From a virus, in IMG/VR virus record IMGVR_UViG_3300002334_000196, positions 1 through 55,459 of that record: a stretch of 55,459 nucleotides of DNA. One strand, 5' to 3'. Shown piece after piece: positions 2,808 through 55,404 of the stretch. The notes under the pieces were generated by a model. The model made no database searches. It saw nothing but the letters and a program-made list of their open reading frames with translations, and had not been told where the DNA came from. Position 1 is the first letter of the stretch, and each line of letters starts with the position of its first letter. Made by a program: the position numbers and the translations under genes.

Positions 2808-3413
2808 CTAGTTTAAGTCTGAATTTTTGTTCATGTAAAATAATTCTGCTGGGCCTGTGTGCGCCCAATCCCAAATGAATATTGAGAAGTTGTGGCGAGG
2901 GCTACCTGTAGTGCCTTCGATCCATCTTGGGCGAGTCGTGAGAACTATTTTAGCACGAAATGCCGGATGATGCGAGAAAATATCCATACGGTTTTTGCCA
3001 CAATCAAATTCATTCCTGAGTATCATTCCCACTTTACCTTGACAGCCCTTCATCAATTTCAACGCATGCCGGATGAATTCCTCCGCAAGCGGTCCGTAGG
3101 GTGGATTGGTAAAAATCATGCCTGAGTGATACGTCTTATATTCTTTCAGAAAGTCAGAAGTAGCAACGCCTTCTAATTGAGGGTTTAAGTCTGTTTGAAG
3201 CACATTGTATCCGTGCTTCTTAAACACATCGGATATATGCCCTTGACCGTCTGCACATTCCCAAATCAAATCATCGGAGCGCAGGATCATTTCATCTTCC
3301 ATGATCATAATAGCATTCTTAGTTATCCAACTTGGCGTTGGATAAAAGTCATTGTCGATGCGGTCGAAATTGGACTTCGACATTGCTGGGTCTGTATTAG
3401 GAATTTGTGACAT
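2808..3413 (-). CDS. N6-adenine DNA methyltransferase-like protein
   Basis: A 201-residue protein with a TNPPYGP catalytic motif (near residue 102), characteristic of N6-adenine methyltransferases. A degenerate SAM-binding region (WECADGQG near residue 52) and the opening segment DFYPTPSW are both typical of small phage DNA adenine methyltransferases. It could modify phage DNA against restriction. No specificity domain is visible. The gene starts at a TAATG overlap with the HD-domain gene and is followed by the metallophosphoesterase 14 nt downstream. Confidence 0.75.
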   Translation of the reverse strand: MSQIPNTDPAMSKSNFDRIDNDFYPTPSWITKNAIMIMEDEMILRSDDLIWECADGQGHISDVFKKHGYNVLQTDLNPQLEGVATSDFLKEYKTYHSGMIFTNPPYGPLAEEFIRHALKLMKGCQGKVGMILRNEFDCGKNRMDIFSHHPAFRAKIVLTTRPRWIEGTTGSPRHNFSIFIWDWAHTGPAELFYMNKNSDLN

Positions 3414-4075
3414 TATGCTGCGTCCGCCAGAATGTTTAAACGGTTTGATAGATCAACATACCGTTCGAGAAATCTGGTGCGAGCGAGCGGGATATCCCAC
3501 CAGGCAACACGATGACCGAAAGTTGTTTCGAATGTTTCACCGGCGAACATTGTTCCAATGATGTTTTGATCATCAACGCACGGACGCATGAGCGCACGGC
3601 ACTCCATATTAAACACTCGGAAATCATACAACTTGAGAAGATTTTCTTCTTCCTCAGTCAGCACCTTGCCGAGATATCTTTCGTAGATTGCGTTTTGAAA
3701 TTGTTCTTCAATGATTTGAAAGTCCGGCATTTTCTTTTTGAAAGGCGTTGCCATGTCGCCCATGTAAGCTTCGGACCCATCGTGGATCAAGCCCATCATC
3801 GCCATGCAGTCGATGTGTTTACGTTCGTAATCGGCGGTATGGAAAGACCCAGCGCGTGGATCGGACATCTCCTGCTCGATCATCATAGAGACATGAACGG
3901 AATGTTGTGCGACAGAACACATATGGTCGCCTTCATATTGACCTGAGTATCGGTTGGCTTTGCAGAGGCCTTCTGCTATGTCTAAAATACTGACCTTTGT
4001 GACATCAAATTCATCTAATTCGATGAGTTGCGTTACTGTGCGAAAATTCAATCTTGTGTCGATACTCTTTGTCAT
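3413..4075 (-). CDS. HD-domain phosphohydrolase (YfbR-like nucleotidase)
   Basis: A 220-residue HD-superfamily protein. Visible motifs are HSVHVS (first metal-ligand histidines, near residue 58), LIHDGSEAYMGD (the HD pair) and the following TPFKKKMP segment, which resembles the YfbR/5'-deoxynucleotidase group. The expected role is hydrolysis of deoxynucleoside monophosphates in phage nucleotide metabolism. The substrate is inferred from family resemblance. It is the first gene behind the predicted promoter at 4108-4136 and ends in a TAATG overlap with the methyltransferase. Confidence 0.75.
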   Translation of the reverse strand: MTKSIDTRLNFRTVTQLIELDEFDVTKVSILDIAEGLCKANRYSGQYEGDHMCSVAQHSVHVSMMIEQEMSDPRAGSFHTADYERKHIDCMAMMGLIHDGSEAYMGDMATPFKKKMPDFQIIEEQFQNAIYERYLGKVLTEEEENLLKLYDFRVFNMECRALMRPCVDDQNIIGTMFAGETFETTFGHRVAWWDIPLARTRFLERYVDLSNRLNILADAA

Positions 4076-13467: not shown

Positions 13468-14883
13468 TTAGCTGAATTGCTCGTTAGCATAATTTCGCCA
13501 ATCGAACACACCACCCATGATGCATCCATACGGCAACACTTGGTCTACGATCTGTGCAAGCTCATACTTTTTGATACCTTCACGGATCATCGACGCATTT
13601 TTATAGGCGGATGGTAGCTCAGTCACGTCAGCTTCGCCGGACCAGAACCTCATATCGATATCACGAGTTTCTTCTTCGAAAGCCTGCGCGTCAGAGATAC
13701 CAACGGCTACTAGGTCTCTTTTGTGCTGGGCGCGTGAAATCAGCCTGCCTGCGCCGTGTGGAGCGAATCCAAGGGCATCAGGGTTGTCGCTGCCACGAGT
13801 GATTAGAATCGGCTCAGCGGCGTTTAATGGTATGATGGTGAACATTTTAGCATCATCTGCCCAACCGTCGAAGGCTGGAGTCGCACCTTTGCCATGCAGA
13901 AACATGCCATTGCGCTTGAATACGAAATTGTGTTCGTTCCAGAAGCGGTTAACAGTACGTATATTATTAGCCTTAGCCATAGCGCGATAACTAGAACTTG
14001 CATGAATCAAAGTATGATTCAATTTAGTCCAGTCGCGCATGATCTGCAGAGCTTTCCAGTATTCAATACCTTCTGCGCTTTCAGAGTCAATCCAAGCATT
14101 TGATTTATGGGTAGCCGGAGAAATAGACTTGGTGTATTTCTGAGCTGCCTTCATGCCAATTTTATATAGGCGAGCGCCAGGGCCGCGAGAACCAGAGTGA
14201 GTTACAAGAGTAGTGTTGCCGCTAGATTGCATAGTGCCAACCGAGGCAAAATGGTTTCCATCGCCAGAACTGCCAAGATGGCGGTTTGCAAGGTCCAACA
14301 TATGTGGATCATTCAGGAATGAATTCCCCATGAACGCTTCCAACAATTCATCAGTCATGCGATATCTGTCTGGACCACCGGGGCCGAAATGCACAGCATC
14401 ACTCACCGCATCCAATAGGATAGCAGGGGTTACGTTTTTGTACTCAGTCAAGAACATAGAGCAGCAGATATCGGCACTGTGCCAACCGGGATGAATGTGT
14501 GGGCTTTCCACAACAGTGCCAACCGGCATTGAATTAGGTCCAGTAGGACAGGCGTCAGGTAATACAGTTGCGCGAGTGGCGACCGGAGTACGCATGAGTT
14601 TGCCCATGATTTTTTCTACAGCCAAGAGGTTATCTAGGTCGTATTCGCATCCAGCAGTTGTTAGGATGTTGAAAGTCACATTGGCAAGGGGATCAAGGCT
14701 GAGAGGTTTCAGCTCAAGTTTTGGTACAGGAATGAATTCATCCTGTGCCAAAAGTAAGTTTTTGATGCCTTCAAGACTGCGCTCGTCAATGTACGTCTGC
14801 TGATTGGCATATGCCAACATAACAGGAAACAATGGACCGGGGTTGAAACCCCATTCGATTAAATGTCTGCCGGTGATGTTCAT
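13468..14883 (-). CDS. rtcB: RtcB-type RNA ligase
   Basis: A 471-residue RtcB homologue. RtcB joins 2',3'-cyclic phosphate or 3'-phosphate RNA ends to 5'-OH ends with Mn2+ and GTP, mainly in tRNA repair and splicing. Visible conserved elements are the DxxC metal ligands (D138, C141), SSGDGNHF (H211), THSGSRG (H229), NEHNFVF (H318), GKGATPAF, and the guanylylated histidine motif APHGAGR (H376). All key ligands seem present, so it is probably active. The start overlaps the upstream gene by ATGA. The phage also carries tRNAs and a PNKP-like 3'-phosphatase. Confidence 0.92.
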   Translation of the reverse strand: MNITGRHLIEWGFNPGPLFPVMLAYANQQTYIDERSLEGIKNLLLAQDEFIPVPKLELKPLSLDPLANVTFNILTTAGCEYDLDNLLAVEKIMGKLMRTPVATRATVLPDACPTGPNSMPVGTVVESPHIHPGWHSADICCSMFLTEYKNVTPAILLDAVSDAVHFGPGGPDRYRMTDELLEAFMGNSFLNDPHMLDLANRHLGSSGDGNHFASVGTMQSSGNTTLVTHSGSRGPGARLYKIGMKAAQKYTKSISPATHKSNAWIDSESAEGIEYWKALQIMRDWTKLNHTLIHASSSYRAMAKANNIRTVNRFWNEHNFVFKRNGMFLHGKGATPAFDGWADDAKMFTIIPLNAAEPILITRGSDNPDALGFAPHGAGRLISRAQHKRDLVAVGISDAQAFEEETRDIDMRFWSGEADVTELPSAYKNASMIREGIKKYELAQIVDQVLPYGCIMGGVFDWRNYANEQFS

Positions 14884-17329: not shown

Positions 17330-17773
17330 TCAGTAGCTCTTTCCACCGGCCTTGTCCCGGTTTTCTTTTTTGTGATCGGCACGATCCATATTGTACCGGT
17401 TTTTCTCGACAACCGTAGCGCCAAGATTGTATCCTTGTTTACCTCCAGCAGCCAGCATGCGGATAAACGCATCTGCCCATTCTCCTTCAATGCCGTGACG
17501 GTGCGGGAGTTTATCATCCATGAGATTTTTACGATCTGCCTCCAGCGCCTCAGACAGTTCTGAATGGATCAAAGCCGTGGTTTCAGGGAAGCTGAATTCC
17601 TTGCCATCATACCAGCCAGCTTCTCTTTGCGTTTTCTCAGCCAGCATCTGCGCATATGCGAAACCTCTGACGGTTTGAGTTTCCATTACAGTTATGTTTG
17701 CAACATGAACAACTATTTCGTGTGGGAATCCTTCGAAATCCACCACATGTACTTTTGATGTTTTATCTGACAT
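17330..17773 (-). CDS. MazG-like nucleotide pyrophosphohydrolase
   Basis: A 147-residue protein. The C-terminal half contains HSELSEALE and EWADAFIRMLA, the two helices that supply the ExxE and ExxD metal ligands of the all-alpha NTP pyrophosphatase fold. The N-terminal 50 residues are unassigned. Expected activity is hydrolysis of (d)NTPs or nucleotide alarmones to monophosphates. The start at 17773 overlaps the end of the NAMPT gene. It is therefore linked to the NAD+ module. Confidence 0.7.
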   Translation of the reverse strand: MSDKTSKVHVVDFEGFPHEIVVHVANITVMETQTVRGFAYAQMLAEKTQREAGWYDGKEFSFPETTALIHSELSEALEADRKNLMDDKLPHRHGIEGEWADAFIRMLAAGGKQGYNLGATVVEKNRYNMDRADHKKENRDKAGGKSY

Positions 17774-19169
17774 CTTGAGCAACCCTTTCACGAATAGCTT
17801 CCATGTCACCGTCGATGGTTGTGAAGCCATTGACATAATGAGTGATGAGCGCATTAGGAAAGACCGGATTTGTATCTTCCTCAAAACTTAATAGCTGATG
17901 TCTGCTGGAATACCAGACATGATTTTCTTGGCTCACCCAGGCTCTGCCTTTTGCAGACGCTTTGCCTGGATCAGATTTTGGTTCTTTGTTGACTCCATGC
18001 CAGACCTCATCACCATATGAGATAGCATTACATTTCATCGCCCATTTATAATCATCACGATTGTGCTTCTGCAGCAGACCGCCACCCATACCAAATGCAG
18101 TATTATCGAGTGACCACAATGCATCAGCAATAGCACCAATCAGGAGGGGTAAAGAAGTATCGTCAAGTCCATCACCTTGGATCAACCGCACTTTATCGTG
18201 CAGCATTTTGAAGCCATCATTGTTGAAGGTAATACCAAACTGGACACCGAGGCGATCCAAACAATCTAGCACCATTGGGATTACTGCGCCAGAGTCGGGG
18301 CGGACGACAAGCTGACCAAGAATTGCAATAACTTCATCTCTGAGCGTGTTGCCCCAAACATTTGTACAGGCGTTTTCAATATCCCATGTGTCTGAGACGG
18401 TGCCAAACATCGTGTGACCAAAAGTCTCCAGCATGTGACGGTATGCTTCGACCTCTCGCCCTTCACCCCAACAGGCCATTGTTGAGTGTTCGGACGCCGG
18501 TATGGAAAATCCAGCCATATCACAATTGTAATATTGGCGAGCATGTAGCAGCGCCATCATTGTATCCGTACCTTGAAAACTGGTGAGATGCGCCCAGCCG
18601 CCGATGGCAGAAGATTCACGAGATGATACGCCGCGCGCACCGAAATCGTGGAGCTTGAATACAGCGGAGTCAACATCGCCACCTGTTTTGCGGAGAGCTT
18701 CTTCGATCAATCTCCTGTAGCCACGAGATTTGGTACCAACCGTAGATGGATACCAGATCGAACGGAGCATACGAGTTTCCTGATGCCCACAGAGCCAAGG
18801 AAAACGAGGATCGGTGTTGTGCGTCTGCAACATCGGTGTACCACGTTCGACAACAGTTCCTTCCGGCAGCGCATCAATGGCGATAGGAAGAAAGCCATCG
18901 AATTCATTGAGGATTGTTTGCCAGCCATCGAAATTGAATTCCAGCCCGGGGATGTGCTTCGGAATAACGTCTTGCGCTTCTTCAATATTCTGTGCGTTGA
19001 TGCGCATATTTTCGATGTACGGCTGCAGCCCCAGAAATGCAACTTCACAATCAGTGTCCGGGTTTCCCCGCGCCGTGATGTAGAACGATTTGTGCGTGGT
19101 ACCGGGTGGGTCCTGCAGATGGTGACTTTGCTTGTAGCTGTCGGTGTCGAGAATAATATTGGCTGTCAT
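17763..19169 (-). CDS. nadV: Nicotinamide phosphoribosyltransferase (NAMPT)
   Basis: A 468-residue NAMPT/NadV homologue, which makes nicotinamide mononucleotide from nicotinamide and PRPP. Recognisable segments are DTDSYKQSHH at the N terminus, HDFGARGVSSRES, HSTMACWGE, VVRPDSG and GMGGGLLQK, all conserved in the family. The start at 19169 is set by GGAGC six bases upstream. Together with the adenylyltransferase at 19578-20585 it can rebuild NAD+ in two steps. Established knowledge: phage NAMPT plus NMN adenylyltransferase forms the NARP2 pathway, which counters NAD+-depleting defences. Confidence 0.93.
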   Translation of the reverse strand: MTANIILDTDSYKQSHHLQDPPGTTHKSFYITARGNPDTDCEVAFLGLQPYIENMRINAQNIEEAQDVIPKHIPGLEFNFDGWQTILNEFDGFLPIAIDALPEGTVVERGTPMLQTHNTDPRFPWLCGHQETRMLRSIWYPSTVGTKSRGYRRLIEEALRKTGGDVDSAVFKLHDFGARGVSSRESSAIGGWAHLTSFQGTDTMMALLHARQYYNCDMAGFSIPASEHSTMACWGEGREVEAYRHMLETFGHTMFGTVSDTWDIENACTNVWGNTLRDEVIAILGQLVVRPDSGAVIPMVLDCLDRLGVQFGITFNNDGFKMLHDKVRLIQGDGLDDTSLPLLIGAIADALWSLDNTAFGMGGGLLQKHNRDDYKWAMKCNAISYGDEVWHGVNKEPKSDPGKASAKGRAWVSQENHVWYSSRHQLLSFEEDTNPVFPNALITHYVNGFTTIDGDMEAIRERVAQDVR

Positions 19170-19170
19170 G

Positions 19171-19569
19171 TTATGCTCCGATTTTTTGATTAGCATCAGA
19201 CCAGTTAACTTCGCCAGTCTCTTTAAGATGCAGTAATGTATTTATCGCCAGTTTTCTTTGAAGTGAAAGATCGCCGCCATATATGTCTGGCATGACCTTC
19301 TCTTCCGGTAAAAATAACAGCCTACCTTCGCTGTCCGAGATTCCCAAGAACTTATTTGCTGTACTATGTCTACCCCAATCCTGAGGTTCCATTTTACCTC
19401 CGTTCAATATATAATTAATATGCCCACATAGGCAGGAAGCTGTTCCGCATGAAGCTGTTCCGCATGAAGATGGCGATGTATAGATTTGATAATCTGCCAT
19501 ATCAAAAAATACTTCTTCATCTTTTAGGATGTCTATCAAGATATCAATATTCTGTTTATTGACTGGCAT
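19171..19569 (-). CDS. Hypothetical protein with a tandem CGTAS cysteine repeat, 132 aa
   Basis: It lies between the two NAD+ genes in the same operon. A 15-bp tandem duplication (about 19436-19467) encodes CGTAS twice, followed by CLCGH. The CGTxxCxxGH-like element occurs in other hypothetical proteins I cannot name. Zinc or redox binding is possible. The duplication may be recent. Confidence 0.6.
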   Translation of the reverse strand: MPVNKQNIDILIDILKDEEVFFDMADYQIYTSPSSCGTASCGTASCLCGHINYILNGGKMEPQDWGRHSTANKFLGISDSEGRLLFLPEEKVMPDIYGGDLSLQRKLAINTLLHLKETGEVNWSDANQKIGA

Positions 19570-39032: not shown

Positions 39033-39156
39033 GCTGAAAGAAAGAAAAAAGATTTCATGCTTGCTTGCTTGGCGAGCTCTCGGCGCGCAGCGCGGAAGAA
39101 GAAATTTTTCTGCTTGACGGCTTTTTGCGGCTCGCCGTGTTTCTGCGTGCAGCATG

Positions 39157-39408
39157 GTTAACGGACTTGGTGAAAAAAGATGGTTAACAAATCGTTAAAA
39201 AACGTGGTTAACAAAATCTTAACGTTAACCAGTTAACGATTCGTTAAGGTTAACGAAATGTGAATTTCATCTTTTGTTAACTTAGTCTGGAAACGATTTG
39301 TTGTCAATCGTTAACCAATGTTCATCATAATTATTAAGGTTAACGTTTTGCAAAATTAAACATTTGTTAACCTTACGAATTAAGGTTAACGTGTGAAATT
39401 ACGTTAAC
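39157..39408. repeat. Cluster of twelve GTTAAC palindromes, candidate origin or binding array
   Basis: Exact GTTAAC occurs at 39157, 39183, 39207, 39224, 39232, 39249, 39276, 39310, 39339, 39366, 39385 and 39403. Twelve copies in 252 bp compares with about one per 4 kb by chance. The last pair-wise element is GTTAACCTTA-N5-TAAGGTTAAC (39366-39390). No ORF lies here. Directly adjacent are three 31-bp iterons. Confidence 0.75.
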
Positions 39409-39503
39409 GGAAAATTAACCATACCAAAATTTTGTTGGTCGAAAAATTGACAGACCGATTTTTATGTGAGTGGAAAATTTCCACACGAAAATTTTGAACC
39501 GGC

Positions 39504-39596
39504 AAAAAATTCACACGCAACTTTTATGTATTCGAAAAAATTCACACGCAACTTTTATGCACTCGAAAAAATTCACACGCAACTTTTATGTGCTAG
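39504..39596 (+). repeat. Three tandem 31-bp iterons
   Basis: Copies at 39504-39534, 39535-39565 and 39566-39596 share AAAAAATTCACACGCAAC followed by TTTTATG and differ only in the last bases. Degenerate copies seem to precede them (about 39440-39503). Period of 31 bp is close to three helical turns. AT-rich iterons next to a palindrome array resemble replication origins or partition sites of phages and plasmids. Confidence 0.8.
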
Positions 39597-39649
39597 GTAA
39601 AATTTTTTCTGAACATTAACGCTCTATAAACCAACTAAAACGAATCGGC

Positions 39650-43601: not shown

Positions 43602-44045
43602 TCCCATTGCACATGTGATATATGGAATAGTGCGAGCCTTGGCTATGAGCCACACATTCACCTGATACCCTGCATATATGATATCGCATTAGCATAGAGC
43701 TATTGTCTATCACATGCACATGCCTGCCCCTGCTACCCTGCCCATATGAGCCCCGTTGTATGAGCCCATATATGAGCCCTCTATTAGGGGGCATGGCTGC
43801 ACATACACATGTGCATGCACATCATGTGTAGATGAGCGCCATACTGCATGCGTGTACATGGGCAGAGCCTGGAACACATCAACATATTGATGAGCCACGC
43901 CTTAACCATATGATTATTTTTATATAAGGGAGTACCCCCACCCCCTCCAAAATATTAATAAAAAATTAGGAATGAATCTTAACTAATACACGCAGCATCC
44001 GTCCTCAAATTAACACAAAATTAACCATGTTTGTTGACCACATTT

Positions 44046-44070
44046 GTTAACCTTATTTATTAAGGTTAAC
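44046..44070. repeat. 25-bp palindrome GTTAACCTTA-N5-TAAGGTTAAC
   Basis: Both 10-bp arms are identical to those of the copy at 39366-39390; a copy with one mismatch is at 38290-38314. Only the 5-bp centre varies. Confidence 0.7.
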
Positions 44071-44261
44071 GGGGGACCCAAGCGGGGGTACCCCCTGGGG
44101 TATGGTTAACGCGCCCCTCACTGTAAAACAAATGAATCAGTTTTTAAAGTTTCACTTCTCATGTAGCTACAGGGGGGGAGTACCCCTTTAAAAACGCCGA
44201 CCCCTTACCTCTAAAATTAAATATTTTGCATAAAAATTGTTTGAGCCACTATATTAAAAAC

Positions 44262-44290
44262 TTGACTTTTCGCTATGGTTAATGGACAAT
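44262..44290 (+). promoter_or_regulatory. Sigma70-like promoter before the portal gene, GGTTAAT in the spacer
   Basis: TTGACT, a 17-nt spacer TTTCGCTATGGTTAATG, then GACAAT. It lies 35 nt before the portal ATG. Confidence 0.6.
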
Positions 44291-44325
44291 TCGCCTAACT
44301 CATTCATAGACATGGATTCGCACAA

Positions 44326-51240: not shown

Positions 51241-51269
51241 TTGACTCCCTGATTTCCTTCACGTATAAC
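51241..51269 (+). promoter_or_regulatory. Strong sigma70-like promoter for the large non-coding RNA
   Basis: TTGACT, a 17-nt spacer, then TATAAC. The predicted start site near 51276 is 10 nt before the first tetraloop hairpin. Confidence 0.65.
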
Positions 51270-51275
51270 GGATAA

Positions 51276-52660
51276 ATCAAAGCGCGTTACTTCGGTAACA
51301 AGCTAAGTGTAGATAGCAGACTAGGACCTGGGGGCAGTACCCAGCATCTCCACCACAAACACACTCTAAGCTGGCTGATACCCGCTGACCGGTTTTCGTA
51401 ACTACCCTGTATCAGCAGGATGAGAAAATTGAGTGTGTTTATGATGGGGATGAAATAGGATCGACTGGTTGTGAATGATATTGAGTTGTCTTTGATTATG
51501 GCGAGAACGCACACGTTAAATGCAAATGATAACGTAAAAATTGAAATGGAACTTGCAATTGCCGCGTAAGCGTCAACCATAGTTACCATGGAATGGGTTC
51601 GAAGATGGAAAAGGACCTGGAAACAGAAATCTTCATAAATTATACCGAGTGATCTGCAGATACAGATTACGGACTGAAACAGAACCGACGATCAAAAGTC
51701 GGGTGCTCAGTAAGTCAAGAGAGAGGGTTACGACCTCGCCTCGGTGCCAGTTAACGGGCAAACCCTCCCTGATAGGGCATGCATGCGATGGTAGGAGAAT
51801 CCCCTACTTGTCCGACCAGAATATCAAGGTTTCCTATCATGACAATAGTCTAGGAACGGTAAGCGAACGAAACTTATAGGCGCGCGTCTCTTAACGTGTG
51901 ATAACTAGAGCTGAAAACAACGGCAGAGCGAAAGCTCAGCACCTTGACCACAAAGACCGCTCGACCATCCTCCCACGGATGCCGGACGGAAAAGGATAAA
52001 CGTCCCTCTAAAAAGAAGATATCTGATGGAGATAGCGGCAACTCTGGAAACGGTCGCTTGAATTCGGAGCCGCTAACTCAGCCCGGCAGGGCGTATGCTA
52101 CACGAGAGAGCGTGCGAAGCAGACAAAACTAGCCGGTAATAAGCACACCCTCCGATGCTAATACACGATGCAGCTAAACTTCGTGTGACTTACGTTCGGT
52201 GGAGAGCAACCGGCAAATAGCCTCGTCACCTTAATTGGCGTGACTTGTGGGTGGAAGAGTAACCCTCGATAGACAATTGAACAAATGCCCTTGGTCGCGC
52301 TTGGGCTGACTTCGGGAGGTGGAAAGAACCTCCCTACAAATTCAGTTTGGATTGTTGCTCTTTAAGTTTAGTATAATGGAGAGCGCCGGACGGTAAATTA
52401 GCCACTAGTAAATCGGTGTTCCCTAAGGCTAAACACTTCTGGTAATCACCCAGAGGTGCCGACATAATCGCTTGATACCGATTATCTGTGGAGCCATCGC
52501 GAGGCAATTTTACGTCACGGAGTCCATCATAGGAATAGGAAGGTCCCGCAACTCAAAGAAATGGCGGGTGTATTGTTCTCTTAGGAGTTAATGACCTGAG
52601 GAATAAGCCGGAGCTGAGATTCATTACTTGCTTCCTGGGAGAAACTTGGCTCCCTGCCTA
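51276..52660 (+). ncRNA. Candidate giant structured non-coding RNA (GOLLD/ROOL-like?)
   Basis: About 1.4 kb with no credible ORF but many perfect complementary segments. Examples: GTTAC-TTCG-GTAAC (51286-51299); AAACACACTC (51357-51366) with GAGTGTGTTT (51431-51440), enclosing GCTGATAC (51374-51381) with GTATCAGC (51409-51416); GAGGGTT (51723) with AACCCTC (51761); TGATAGG (51770) with CCTATCA (51833); GAGC-GAAA-GCTC (51926-51937); AGCGGC (52034) with GCCGCT (52069); GCCC-GGCA-GGGC (52081); GGGAGGT (52314) with ACCTCCC (52328); and ATAATCG (52464) with CGATTAT (52479). Nested stems and UUCG or GNRA loops suggest a folded RNA. Giant phage RNAs such as GOLLD and ROOL are known next to tRNA arrays, as here. 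The exact family and 3' end are not known. Confidence 0.7.
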
Positions 52661-52684
52661 TGCGAAACAACAAATGGAGAAGAA

Positions 52685-52909
52685 ATGCGAATTTTTAAAA
52701 CAATTCTGTTGACTATCCTATTAACCGGATGCTATAGTGCAGCCTACGCCAGGTCCAGCATTAATATGGGACCCAATGAACGTGTCGTCGTAATTCACAA
52801 CGGTTCGTCTCATGAAATCATAACTGATCGCTACAACAACGTGACGATCAATATCAAACGTCTTCCGACTCGGAGGACTAAACACAGACGCAAAAGGACA
52901 CGAAAATGA
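52685..52909 (+). CDS. Small lipoprotein, 74 aa
   Basis: GGAGAAG precedes the ATG at 52685. The signal peptide ends in the lipobox LTGC (C16). The mature part is basic, with an R/K-rich tail. It follows directly behind the RNA candidate and overlaps the next gene by ATGA. Confidence 0.6.
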   Translation: MRIFKTILLTILLTGCYSAAYARSSINMGPNERVVVIHNGSSHEIITDRYNNVTINIKRLPTRRTKHRRKRTRK

Positions 52910-53468: not shown

Positions 53469-53543
53469 AGCTATGTAGGCAAGAGGTAAGTCAACGCACT
53501 GTTAATGCGCGAAGCGCAGGTTCGATTCCTGCCGTAGCTGCCA
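53469..53543 (+). tRNA. tRNA-Asn (GTT)
   Basis: The acceptor AGCTATG/CGTAGCT pairs with one G-T. The anticodon arm is CGCA-CTGTTAA-TGCG with one mismatch above it. The T arm is GCAGG-TTCGATT-CCTGC, with discriminator G and encoded CCA. Confidence 0.8.
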
Positions 53544-53550
53544 AGTTAAC

Positions 53551-53608
53551 ACACCGGGCACATCACCGGTGGATATGAATGGAGCAGCTCAAGCTGCCGG
53601 GTGTGAAT
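53551..53608 (+). other. Short multi-stem RNA-like element between tRNAs
   Basis: CACACC at the 5' end pairs with GGTGTG at the 3' end. It encloses the self-complementary CACCGGTG and a GCAGC-TCAA-GCTGC hairpin. It looks like a three-way junction, not a tRNA. Confidence 0.35.
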
Positions 53609-53612
53609 ATTA

Positions 53613-53687
53613 GCTAGTGTAGCTTAATGGTAGAGCCAGTAGCTCATAACTACTAAAGTCTTGGTTCGAATCCAGGTTCTAGCACCA
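53613..53687 (+). tRNA. tRNA-Met-type (CAT)
   Basis: The acceptor GCTAGTG with TTCTAGC has one mismatch and one G-T. The anticodon arm AGTAG-CTCATAA-CTACT is perfect. The T arm is CTTGG-TTCGAAT-CCAGG, with discriminator A and encoded CCA. It is one of three CAT tRNAs; it could read Met, or Ile if modified by lysidine. Confidence 0.85.
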
Positions 53688-53701
53688 AAAAGGAAATGAA
53701 T

Positions 53702-53821
53702 ATGAAAAACGCACGTTGGCTGATACTTATTTCAATGATACTCATCGCCTCGGCTATACAGCTTGGCGCAATAATTCCGGTAGAAACAGCATCAGCTAAT
53801 CCTGAATTTATTCTACCTTAA
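53702..53821 (+). CDS. Small exported or membrane protein within the tRNA array, 39 aa
   Basis: AGGAA precedes the ATG at 53702. The product is a signal-peptide-like hydrophobic stretch followed by about 15 residues. No ORF-based evidence beyond this. Confidence 0.5.
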   Translation: MKNARWLILISMILIASAIQLGAIIPVETASANPEFILP

Positions 53822-53828
53822 AGACAAC

Positions 53829-53904
53829 GGGTTTGTAGCTCAAATGGGAGAGCGCCGGATTTGCAATTCGGAGGTTAAGGGTTCGATCCCCTTCTTATCC
53901 ACCA
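53829..53904 (+). tRNA. tRNA-Ala (TGC)
   Basis: The acceptor is GGGTTTG with CTTATCC and has the G3-U70 wobble pair that identifies alanine tRNAs, but also two T-T mismatches. The anticodon arm is CCGGA-TTTGCAA-TTCGG. The T arm AAGGG-TTCGATC-CCCTT is perfect, with discriminator A and encoded CCA. Confidence 0.8.
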
Positions 53905-53907
53905 ATA

Positions 53908-53980
53908 TGGGCGAGTAGATCAATTGGAAGATCGCCGAAACACCCCCGGAGACAGTGGTTCAATTCCACTCCGCCCACAA
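53908..53980 (+). tRNA. tRNA-like element, anticodon undetermined
   Basis: The acceptor TGGGCGA/CCGCCCA, the D arm GATC/GATC and the T arm AGTGG-TTCAATT-CCACT are clear. The anticodon region is only about 20 nt, with a CCG/CGG stem around AAACACCCC and no normal U33. CCA is not encoded. It may be degenerate or unusual. Confidence 0.5.
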
Positions 53981-53988
53981 ACAAATAT

Positions 53989-54064
53989 AGGAGTGTAGCT
54001 CAGTGTGTAGAGCAGCGGATTCCAAACCCGCGTGTCGAGGGTTCGATTCCTTCCCCTCCTGCCA
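53989..54064 (+). tRNA. tRNA-Trp (CCA)
   Basis: The acceptor AGGAGTG with CCCTCCT has one mismatch. The anticodon arm is GCGGA-TTCCAAA-CCCGC. The T arm is GAGGG-TTCGATT-CCTTC, with discriminator G and encoded CCA, as in bacterial tRNA-Trp. Confidence 0.88.
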
Positions 54065-54107
54065 ATTAAGAATTACCGGTTAAAGGCCTCAATCTTTGAC
54101 TGGTATA

Positions 54108-54180
54108 GCACCGAAGCTGAAATGATAGCACCCACGCTAATACAAGTGGGAAGTTTGTGGTTAACCAATATCACCGGTGC
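54108..54180 (+). tRNA. Strongly divergent tRNA-like element
   Basis: GCACCG pairs with CGGTGC at the ends. A short GCT/AGC stem, a perfect CCCAC/GTGGG stem with a 10-nt loop, and GTGGT/ATCAC with an 8-nt loop can be drawn as a cloverleaf. The T loop is not TTCRA-like and no CCA follows. It may be a tRNA relic or a mimic. Confidence 0.35.
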
Positions 54181-54191
54181 GCACATAATTT

Positions 54192-54267
54192 TGTAGGTTA
54201 GCTCAGTTGGTAGAGCAGGGAACCGATAATTCTCAGGTCGCTGGTTCGAGTCCAGCACTTACAACCA
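54192..54267 (+). tRNA. tRNA-Ile (GAT)
   Basis: The acceptor TGTAGGT/ACTTACA has one G-T. The D arm is GCTC/GAGC. The anticodon arm is GGGAA-CCGATAA-TTCTC. The T arm GCTGG-TTCGAGT-CCAGC is perfect, with discriminator A and encoded CCA. Confidence 0.88.
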
Positions 54268-54307
54268 AATCAAGTTACTAGACCTTTAAAACTAGACCAT
54301 ATTTAAG

Positions 54308-54336
54308 TTGACAAGTATCTCTTTACAACTTATGAA
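54308..54336 (+). promoter_or_regulatory. Sigma70-like promoter inside the tRNA array
   Basis: TTGACA, a 17-nt spacer, then TATGAA, ending 15 nt before the initiator-like tRNA. Confidence 0.55.
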
Positions 54337-54351
54337 CATGTAAGTAATTAT

Positions 54352-54431
54352 TGCGGGTTGGAGAAGTCTGGTCTAATCTCACCGGTCTCATAAATCGGAA
54401 ATCGTTGGTTCAAATCCAACACCCGCTACCA
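54352..54431 (+). tRNA. Initiator-like tRNA-fMet (CAT)
   Basis: The six inner acceptor pairs GCGGGT/ACCCGC are perfect while the first pair is T-T, unpaired as in bacterial initiators (C-A there). The D stem is GAGA/TCTC, the anticodon arm is CCGGT-CTCATAA-ATCGG, and the T arm is GTTGG-TTCAAAT-CCAAC. CCA is encoded. The run of three G-C pairs typical of fMet anticodon stems is missing. Confidence 0.8.
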
Positions 54432-54436
54432 AGTTT

Positions 54437-54503
54437 TGAGAGTCCTGTTGGTACAGGCTAGCAGGTTGGCCAACCGAGGATGGTTCGATTCCGTCACTCT
54501 CAA
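54437..54503 (+). tRNA. Short tRNA-like element with aberrant anticodon arm
   Basis: The acceptor TGAGAGT/ACTCTCA is perfect, the D stem CCTG/CAGG is perfect, and the T arm is GATGG-TTCGATT-CCGTC. The anticodon region is the palindrome GGTTGGCCAACC, so a normal 7-nt loop cannot form. Residues 8-9 are missing and CCA is not encoded. It is only 67 nt. Confidence 0.5.
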
Positions 54504-54512
54504 ATTGAATAT

Positions 54513-54588
54513 GTCAGTGTAGCTCAGAGTGTAGAGCATGCTCTTCATACGGGTAAGGTCGGAGTCTCAAACACTCCCATTGACACCA
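54513..54588 (+). tRNA. tRNA with CAT anticodon (Met or Ile2)
   Basis: The acceptor GTCAGTG/CATTGAC has one G-T. The D arm is GCTC/GAGC. The anticodon arm is TGCTC-TTCATAC-GGGTA with wobble pairs. The T arm is GGAGT-CTCAAAC-ACTCC, with discriminator A and encoded CCA. It is the third CAT tRNA in the array. Confidence 0.75.
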
Positions 54589-54709
54589 AAATACATGCTT
54601 CCGCGATGATCCGGGTCCACTGTTCTGTGATGGAATACGACAAGCACATGAATTAACATGTGATGGCAGGGTAGCTCCCAACGTCTACGGACTTCTAATT
54701 ATTACATTT
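54589..54709 (+). other. Spacer with a CACATG/CATGTG hairpin
   Basis: A 6-bp hairpin (54645-54662) with loop AATTAA. Nothing else is convincing. Confidence 0.4.
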
Positions 54710-54786
54710 GGACCGGTACTCAAGTGGTCTAAGAGAGCGGACTTTTAATCCGTCATTCGTGGGTTCAAATCCCACCCGGTCTTCCA
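54710..54786 (+). tRNA. tRNA-Lys (TTT), probable
   Basis: The acceptor GGACCGG/CCGGTCT has a G-T first pair. The anticodon arm is GCGGA-CTTTTAA-TCCGT. The T arm GTGGG-TTCAAAT-CCCAC is perfect and CCA is encoded. The discriminator T and the Ser/Leu-like D loop are unusual for Lys. Confidence 0.75.
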
Positions 54787-54791
54787 AATAC

Positions 54792-54879
54792 GGAGAGTTA
54801 ATCGCACGAGGTGTGACTTGGCCTTGAAAACCAAAGGTGCCTTAACGGGTATGGGGGGCGGGACCTCAGCTCTCTTCCA
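54792..54879 (+). tRNA. tRNA-Ser-like (TGA) with abnormal T arm
   Basis: The acceptor GGAGAGT/GCTCTCT has two G-T pairs. The anticodon loop CTTGAAA sits on TTGGC/ACCAA with one mismatch. Long variable region and encoded CCA. The normal TTCRA T loop is missing and the T-arm region is very G-rich. Confidence 0.6.
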
Positions 54880-54926
54880 TTATAACCGGTCAATTTTGAC
54901 CCACTAAGCGCCCACACCCGGCACAA

Positions 54927-54958
54927 AGTGTCAGAAGTGGCAGGTTACTTCTGACACT
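54927..54958. other. Perfect 12-bp hairpin between tRNA genes
   Basis: AGTGTCAGAAGT (54927-54938) pairs with ACTTCTGACACT (54947-54958) around GGCAGGTT. A second hairpin, TTTAATGG with CCATTAAA, follows (about 54968-55004). No clear T-run; it could be a processing or termination signal. Confidence 0.55.
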
Positions 54959-55066
54959 AATTCTGCTTTAATGGTATGGTGCACCACGTAACACTCCATT
55001 AAAGACGATTTATAATGTTGCCTACAGGCGACACAAACCGAGCTAGTGTATTGTGGAGGCAACAAT

Positions 55067-55219
55067 ATGACCGTATTATCAAAATTAGAATTCCTTGCTT
55101 TCGAGCGCCAAGTGGAAACTACGGATGCAACACCAGAAGCAAAAGCTGCAGTAATACGTGGACGCGAACTGGTTGCCGAGCTGAACGAAAAAGGATTCGT
55201 ATCAGTTAAATTGAATTAA
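55067..55219 (+). CDS. Small protein within the tRNA array, 50 aa
   Basis: GGAGG lies 7 nt before the ATG at 55067, and a TATAAT sits at 55011-55016. The product is helical and charged. Its stop codon overlaps the 5' end of the next tRNA gene, just as the GGQ gene overlaps the tRNA-Cys. Not recognised. Confidence 0.65.
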   Translation: MTVLSKLEFLAFERQVETTDATPEAKAAVIRGRELVAELNEKGFVSVKLN

Positions 55220-55308
55220 GATGATTGGCTGAGTCTGGTTTAAAGCACCGGTCAGTAGTGATCGGAGTCCCCTGCGGGGGACCGTAGGTTCAAATCCTAC
55301 ATCATCTT
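55219..55308 (+). tRNA. Class II tRNA, anticodon undetermined
   Basis: The acceptor AGATGAT/ATCATCT is perfect. The D arm is of the serine type (TGGCTGAGT). The variable arm is GTCCCC/GGGGGAC. The T arm GTAGG-TTCAAAT-CCTAC is perfect. The anticodon stem CCGGT/ATCGG leaves an 8-nt loop CAGTAGTG without U33 at the normal place. CCA is not encoded. Confidence 0.65.
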
Positions 55309-55312
55309 ATAT

Positions 55313-55404
55313 GGAGAGTTGGCTGAGTCAGGCTTAAGGCGTCAGGTTGCTACCTTGATAGACCATTGTGTGTCTCATGGGTTCAAATCCCATACTCTCT
55401 TCCA
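55313..55404 (+). tRNA. tRNA-Ser (GCT)
   Basis: The acceptor GGAGAGT/ACTCTCT has one G-T. The anticodon arm is TCAGG-TTGCTAC-CTTGA. The variable arm is AGAC/GTCT. The T arm ATGGG-TTCAAAT-CCCAT is perfect, with discriminator T and encoded CCA. Confidence 0.85.

What the first reader, a model, noticed from the sequence alone, without database searches (positions are those of the whole stretch)
51241..52660. Candidate giant structured non-coding RNA next to the tRNA array
Immediately behind a TTGACT-17-TATAAC promoter lies about 1.4 kb with no credible ORF and at least fifteen perfect complementary segments, including nested long-range stems (10 bp at 51357/51431 enclosing 8 bp at 51374/51409) and UUCG and GNRA tetraloops. 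GOLLD and ROOL RNAs are large ornate RNAs known in phages beside tRNA genes. This could be a divergent member or a new class, and it is larger than typical ROOL RNAs.
Basis: partly seen in the sequence, partly recalled or inferred. Interest (0 to 1): 0.92.

Follow-up and report, generated by a model that had tools for sequence, protein, structure and literature searches.

The report
Phage permuted tmRNA plus orphan RNA stretch
The first 400 bases are a phage copy of a known ribosome-rescue RNA (a permuted, two-piece tmRNA) and not a giant RNA; the 1,000 non-coding bases behind it match no known RNA, although related phages carry the giant RNA GOLLD next to the same gene.

Summary
The finding merges two things. 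Window 51246-51660 (+) is a circularly permuted tmRNA gene: Rfam alpha_tmRNA 108 bits, tmRNA_permuted 91 bits; ARAGORN tag ANDNVKIEMELAIAA*. The 10-bp stem is the helix closing its excised intervening segment. I found that helix, in one fixed register with many base-pair changes, in 76% of 103 viral permuted tmRNAs, 8% after swapping arms between loci, and 13% of 99 bacterial ones. Rfam models no pair there. The remaining 51661-52684 (about 1 kb) has no credible ORF, no match to GOLLD, ROOL or any Rfam family, and no homologue beyond one identical contig. Its fold energy and stem counts do not exceed controls, but true GOLLDs barely do either, so that test is uninformative. Most likely: a tmRNA/tRNA cassette with an orphan non-coding stretch where relatives keep GOLLD. 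A single 1.4-kb giant RNA, or GOLLD/ROOL membership, is not supported.

The parts
51241..51269 (+). sigma-70-like promoter TTGACT-17-TATAAC ahead of the tmRNA gene
   Evidence: sequence position; consensus match only, not listed by the stricter scan
51246..51660 (+). circularly permuted (two-piece) tmRNA gene, whole
   Evidence: RF01849 51246-51637, 108.1 bits, E 3.5e-30; RF04321 51294-51569, 90.8 bits; ARAGORN tmRNA* 51260-51660
51286..51299 (+). UUCG hairpin GUUAC-UUCG-GUAAC, the 5' hairpin of the alpha-type permuted tmRNA model
   Evidence: alignment to RF01849, position
51324..51355 (+). T-arm and 3' acceptor strand of the acceptor piece, ending ...CAUCUCCACCA; with GGGGAUG it makes the acceptor stem with a G3-U70 pair, the tRNA-Ala identity element
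   Evidence: alignment to RF04321, position, sequence
51356..51445 (+). intervening segment (90 nt) expected to be cut out of the precursor
   Evidence: lies between CCA and the GGGG 5' end of the coding piece
51357..51366 (+). 5' arm of the 10-bp helix closing the intervening segment (AAACACACTC)
51431..51440 (+). 3' arm of that helix (GAGTGTGTTT), followed by ATGAT and GGGG
51374..51416 (+). inner 8-bp stem GCTGATAC/GTATCAGC of the intervening segment
   Evidence: not tested for covariation
51446..51660 (+). coding piece of tmRNA (GGGGATGAAATAGGATCGAC ...)
51522..51569 (+). tag reading frame ANDNVKIEMELAIAA-stop
   Evidence: ARAGORN; position
51661..52684 (+). orphan non-coding stretch of about 1,020 nt, probable RNA gene or genes of unknown family; not GOLLD or ROOL
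   Evidence: no ORF or PHROG match; no Rfam match; no diverged homologue; fold test uninformative
52685..52909 (+). small ORF with a GGAG ribosome-binding site, where the non-coding stretch ends
   Evidence: ORF list, weak phrog_902
53469..55404 (+). tRNA array (nine tRNA genes)

Best explanation
The locus is a tmRNA/tRNA cassette of a large siphovirus-type phage related to phages of Alphaproteobacteria. 51246-51660 is a circularly permuted tmRNA gene. Its transcript starts with the acceptor piece, runs through a 90-nt intervening segment and ends with the tag-coding piece. In the precursor the seven acceptor-stem pairs, the ACCA end facing UGAU, and a 10-bp helix of the intervening segment stack into one long hairpin (shown by sequence, covariation of the 10-bp helix, and folding). 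Host RNase P and 3' tRNA-processing enzymes would then cut the segment out, leaving two RNAs held together by base pairing that rescue stalled ribosomes and tag the unfinished protein with ANDNVKIEMELAIAA (inferred from the tmRNA family). The 1 kb behind it is a separate, probably transcribed non-coding stretch that occupies the kind of slot beside the tmRNA where relatives keep the cage-forming RNA GOLLD, but it shows no similarity to GOLLD. I hold it most likely to be an unclassified large structured RNA or a row of small RNAs (about 60%), and otherwise non-conserved filler of the array.
For: tmRNA: RF01849 and RF04321 well over cut-off, ARAGORN tag, the same gene in MD18, MAL1, DSS3P8, RcXuper, Lacusarx and CcrPW at 90-119 bits, annotated ssrA in Lacusarx and MAL1. 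Closing helix: 8 bp or more in 75.7% of 103 distinct viral intervening segments in a single register, 7.8% with 3' arms swapped between loci, 0-3% in eight other registers, each pair 94-99% paired with several pair types; bacterial copies 13% of 99, with shorter segments (median 29 against 86 nt). Fold of the precursor shows the continuous helix. Slot: GOLLD at 150-170 bits beside the permuted tmRNA in DSS3P8, MAL1 and MD18, V10 and BL57 by similarity; other unannotated non-coding stretches at the same place in RcXuper and RpAliso.
Against: No transcript data. For 51661-52684 there is no covariation, no homologue, a fold z-score of only -1.6 to -2.0 and a stem count at chance, so that it is one RNA, or RNA at all, is inferred from lack of ORFs and from position. 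The closing-helix survey used one exact tmRNA motif, so it samples alpha-type permuted tmRNAs only, and many viral rows are related to each other.
Confidence: 0.85

Rival explanations
1. 51661-52684 is a highly diverged GOLLD RNA: it would fold with other copies into a cage, as GOLLD does, and have lost detectable sequence similarity.
For: Position beside a permuted tmRNA and a tRNA array, length about 1 kb, purine-rich T-poor transcript, GOLLD in the same context in five related phages.
Against: The conserved 3' region defines GOLLD and is not found: no match at E up to 10; a model from the related phages scores 2.1 bits, E 1.8, with filters off against 113-147 bits on its own members. The 3' hallmark GUAAUCUCAGCC is absent from the sequence.
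Confidence: 0.08
2. 51661-52684 is a new class of large ornate RNA that fills the same role as GOLLD/ROOL in this phage.
For: 1 kb without ORF in a compact phage genome, no Rfam match, related phages keep large RNAs there.
Against: No covariation or homologues; fold and stem statistics at chance.
Confidence: 0.27
3. 51661-52684 is a row of several small RNAs, decayed tRNA-like genes and spacer, as in the tRNA arrays of RcXuper and RpAliso.
For: The downstream slots of RcXuper and RpAliso fold strongly (z -6.1 and -3.8) and RcXuper shows repeated short units (read); the window tRNA array also has long spacers.
Against: No tRNA or bacterial small-RNA family reaches even E 10 in the stretch; no repeated unit was seen.
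Confidence: 0.35
4. 51661-52684 encodes small or unusual proteins.
For: ORFs of 76 and 62 aa exist.
Against: ORFs are no longer than in shuffled sequence, match no PHROG, and the 76-aa one starts with GTG inside the tmRNA.
Confidence: 0.05

Closest known systems
Permuted (two-piece) tmRNA, alphaproteobacterial type (Rfam RF01849, RF04321)
   Same: Acceptor piece upstream of coding piece, tRNA-like domain with G-U acceptor pair, tag frame ending AIAA, intervening segment between the pieces. Known in phages: 53 two-piece structures among 133 unique phage tmRNAs, mostly marine or aquatic (PMC9004378).
   Different: The intervening segment is 90 nt and closed by a 10-bp helix, as in most viral copies sampled here; bacterial copies are mostly short and lack it. 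RF01849 and RF04321 model no pair there.
GOLLD RNA (RF02032)
   Same: Similar length, same genomic neighbourhood in related phages.
   Different: No sequence or covariance similarity; the conserved 3' domain is missing.
ROOL RNA (RF03087)
   Same: Large phage RNA near tRNA genes (PMC12286853).
   Different: No match.

Membership tests
Permuted tmRNA | covariance match over the curated cut-off | tested here: met
   RF01849 108.1 bits (cut-off 50), RF04321 90.8 bits (cut-off 47)
Permuted tmRNA | acceptor piece with CCA upstream of coding piece, with intervening segment | tested here: met
   CCA ends at 51355, GGGG begins at 51446
Permuted tmRNA | tag reading frame with resume Ala codon and stop | tested here: met
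   ANDNVKIEMELAIAA*
Permuted tmRNA | processing to two RNAs, charging with alanine, trans-translation | not testable with these tools
   needs RNA from infected cells
GOLLD | universally conserved 3' domain (RF02032) | tested here: not met
   no match at E up to 10; lineage-specific model 2.1 bits
GOLLD | phage origin, near tRNA genes, over 800 nt | tested here: met
   about 1,020 nt, tRNA array from 53469; not specific to the family
GOLLD | assembly into an RNA cage | not testable with these tools
   needs cryo-EM
ROOL | covariance match to RF03087 | tested here: not met
   the control genomes gave no positive for this family, so this rests mainly

The most novel reading that the evidence does not exclude
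The 1 kb at 51661-52684 is a new class of large structured phage RNA that takes the place of GOLLD beside a permuted tmRNA, which would make this slot a general site for interchangeable giant RNAs.
Probability: 0.27. Interest if true: 0.78.

Novelty: new member of a known kind. Interest (0 to 1): 0.4.

Why it matters
It corrects a 'giant RNA' to a permuted tmRNA, a recognised but rarely annotated phage gene. It also leaves two testable leads. First, viral permuted-tmRNA precursors carry a conserved helix that extends the acceptor stem and would pair the CCA end until processing; I found no description of it in the papers I could search. Second, GOLLD sits unannotated next to the permuted tmRNA in several cultured phages (DSS3P8, V10, MAL1, MD18, BL57). 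That gives laboratory systems in which a link between GOLLD cages, tRNAs and ribosome rescue could be tested.

Tried and rejected
GOLLD and ROOL membership. Nucleotide homologues of the 1 kb in phage records, in 202 viral loci, in 20 phage records and viral contigs related by ligase, terminase or tmRNA, and by four 16-18-base pattern scans of IMG/VR: only IMGVR 3300002334_000306, identical over 13,675 bases, plus chance matches such as one in a conserved coding gene. Homologues of the neighbouring 146-aa ORF and of the terminase gave no syntenic relative in viral contigs. Fold z-scores and stem counts as proof of structure were rejected: window 1 kb -1.6, true GOLLDs -1.2 to -3.1, coding controls -3.7 to +0.9. 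ORF-poor gaps beside tmRNAs in other contigs (L152, L147) turned out on reading to hold small ORFs with ribosome-binding sites or tRNAs.

Full report
WHAT IS THERE. The Rfam scan of the whole window finds, inside the reported interval, alpha_tmRNA (RF01849) at 51246-51637 with 108.1 bits and tmRNA_permuted (RF04321) at 51294-51569 with 90.8 bits. ARAGORN independently calls a permuted tmRNA at 51260-51660 with tag ANDNVKIEMELAIAA*. The promoter TTGACT-17-TATAAC (51241-51269) lies directly in front. The acceptor piece ends in CCA at 51355, the 90-nt intervening segment is 51356-51445, and the coding piece starts GGGGATGAAATAGGATCGAC at 51446. The acceptor stem GGGGAUG/CAUCUCC carries the G3-U70 pair recognised by alanyl-tRNA synthetase (sequence; general knowledge).

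THE REST. From 51661 to 52684, where a small ORF with a ribosome-binding site begins, there is about 1 kb without credible coding content (longest complete ORF 62 aa, shuffled mean 85) and without PHROG matches. No Rfam family reaches even E = 1 there.

CHANCE TEST. Perfect complementary segments in the reported interval are no more numerous than in dinucleotide shuffles. The 1-kb stretch folds with z = -1.6 (+ strand) and -1.3 (- strand). Three true GOLLDs from relatives give -2.1, -3.1 and -1.2, and coding stretches of the window -3.7 to +0.9. So folding energy neither supports nor refutes an ornate RNA. The fold tool gave -2.0 and -1.5 for a slightly shorter stretch.

THE CLOSING HELIX. In permuted tmRNAs the intervening segment joins the two ends of the acceptor stem. 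I extracted it from viral contigs that share the motif GGNNGAAATAGGATCGAC, from cultured relatives, and from bacterial genomes with the same motif. In 103 distinct viral segments of 22 nt or more, 75.7% have an uninterrupted helix of at least 8 bp in one register, in which the first base after CCA faces the fifth base before GGGG. After swapping 3' arms among loci it is 7.8%, and in eight other registers 0-3%. Each of the pairs tested is 94-99% paired with several pair types. In 99 bacterial segments the figure is 13%, with median length 29 against 86 nt. The four bases UGAU before GGGG (73 of 112 viral segments) face ACCA and can form three of four pairs, so acceptor stem, CCA and closing helix make one continuous hairpin; RNAfold predicts this for the window. 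The window's 10-bp stem is this helix. I infer, without test, that it holds the two halves together and hides the CCA end until RNase P and 3' processing enzymes act. RF01849 and RF04321 show no pair in this segment, and I found no description in the papers available (Sharkady and Williams 2004 was not held).

RELATIVES. DNA ligase and terminase place the phage near large siphovirus-type phages of Alphaproteobacteria: DSS3P8, V10, MD18, DSS3_MAL1, RcXuper, RpAliso, Lacusarx. Of the records searched, MD18, MAL1, DSS3P8, RcXuper, Lacusarx and CcrPW have a permuted tmRNA; ARAGORN finds one in RpAliso and BL57. It is annotated in Lacusarx and MAL1 but not in DSS3P8, RcXuper or CcrPW. Next to it DSS3P8, MAL1 and MD18 carry GOLLD (RF02032, 150.7, 160.5 and 169.6 bits), unannotated; in MAL1 and MD18 a tRNA-Arg lies inside it. 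V10 and Caulobacter phage BL57 match by similarity, BL57 with a tRNA-Gly inside. RcXuper and RpAliso have other non-coding stretches there. GOLLD is described as a phage RNA often near tRNA islands, with a universally conserved 3' region, tRNAs sometimes in the linker, and assembly into a 14-mer cage (PMC12286853).

IS THE WINDOW'S 1 KB A GOLLD? Rfam scanning at E up to 10 and a search with RF02032 alone give nothing. A covariance model of the last 130 positions, built from the four relatives, scores 113-147 bits on them (by construction) and at most 2.1 bits on the window with filters off. Nucleotide comparison with the relatives' slots shows nothing significant. Membership is therefore not met. 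That it works like GOLLD is untested.

HOMOLOGUES. None found beyond a contig identical over 13,675 bases, which carries no evolutionary information; see the rejected list for searches.

VERDICT. The core of the finding is a new member of a known kind: a phage permuted tmRNA. The surplus kilobase is a real orphan in a suggestive position but without evidence of structure. Interest is moderate, carried by the closing helix, the GOLLD-tmRNA neighbourhood in cultured phages, and the unexplained kilobase.

Noticed in passing
L240 1468-1901; L244 2421-2884; L252 5340-5807 (- strand); L251 about 3000-3530: GOLLD RNA, unannotated, next to the permuted tmRNA in phages DSS3P8, DSS3_MAL1, MD18 and Caulobacter BL57; tRNA-Arg or tRNA-Gly embedded in three of them.
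   Followed up: partly
L013 9719-10250 and L005 10250-10720, minus strand of the locus: A conserved non-coding stretch of about 500 nt downstream of DNA ligase in contigs of large phages (up to 342 kb), with blocks such as GTTGCCGTCAGA and GGGGATCGCCAACC; no convincing Rfam match. Possible undescribed RNA.
   Followed up: partly
L240 2580-2780 and L244 3540-3740: A second conserved non-coding element of about 200 nt downstream of the permuted tmRNA in DSS3P8 and MAL1 (72% identity), no Rfam match.
   Followed up: no
L242 3640-4250 (RcXuper) and RpAliso L250 3208-3900: Repeated short units around GGCAGGGCATACTTCTA in RcXuper, with very strong folding in both phages (z -6.1 and -3.8); possibly tRNA-like, one copy weakly matches Y RNA-like YrlA.
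   Followed up: no
window 55218-55309: ARAGORN reports a tRNA with a four-base anticodon (gtag) beside a tRNA-Ser at the end of the array; may be a miscalled long-arm tRNA.
   Followed up: no
window 13468-14880 (- strand) and 17763-19193 (- strand): The phage encodes an RtcB-type RNA ligase and a nicotinamide phosphoribosyltransferase, in line with relatives that carry RNA repair and NAD salvage genes.
   Followed up: no
window 39033-39649 and 43795-44325: Two ORF-poor gaps of 500-600 bases that resemble each other in the gap comparison; nature unknown.
   Followed up: no
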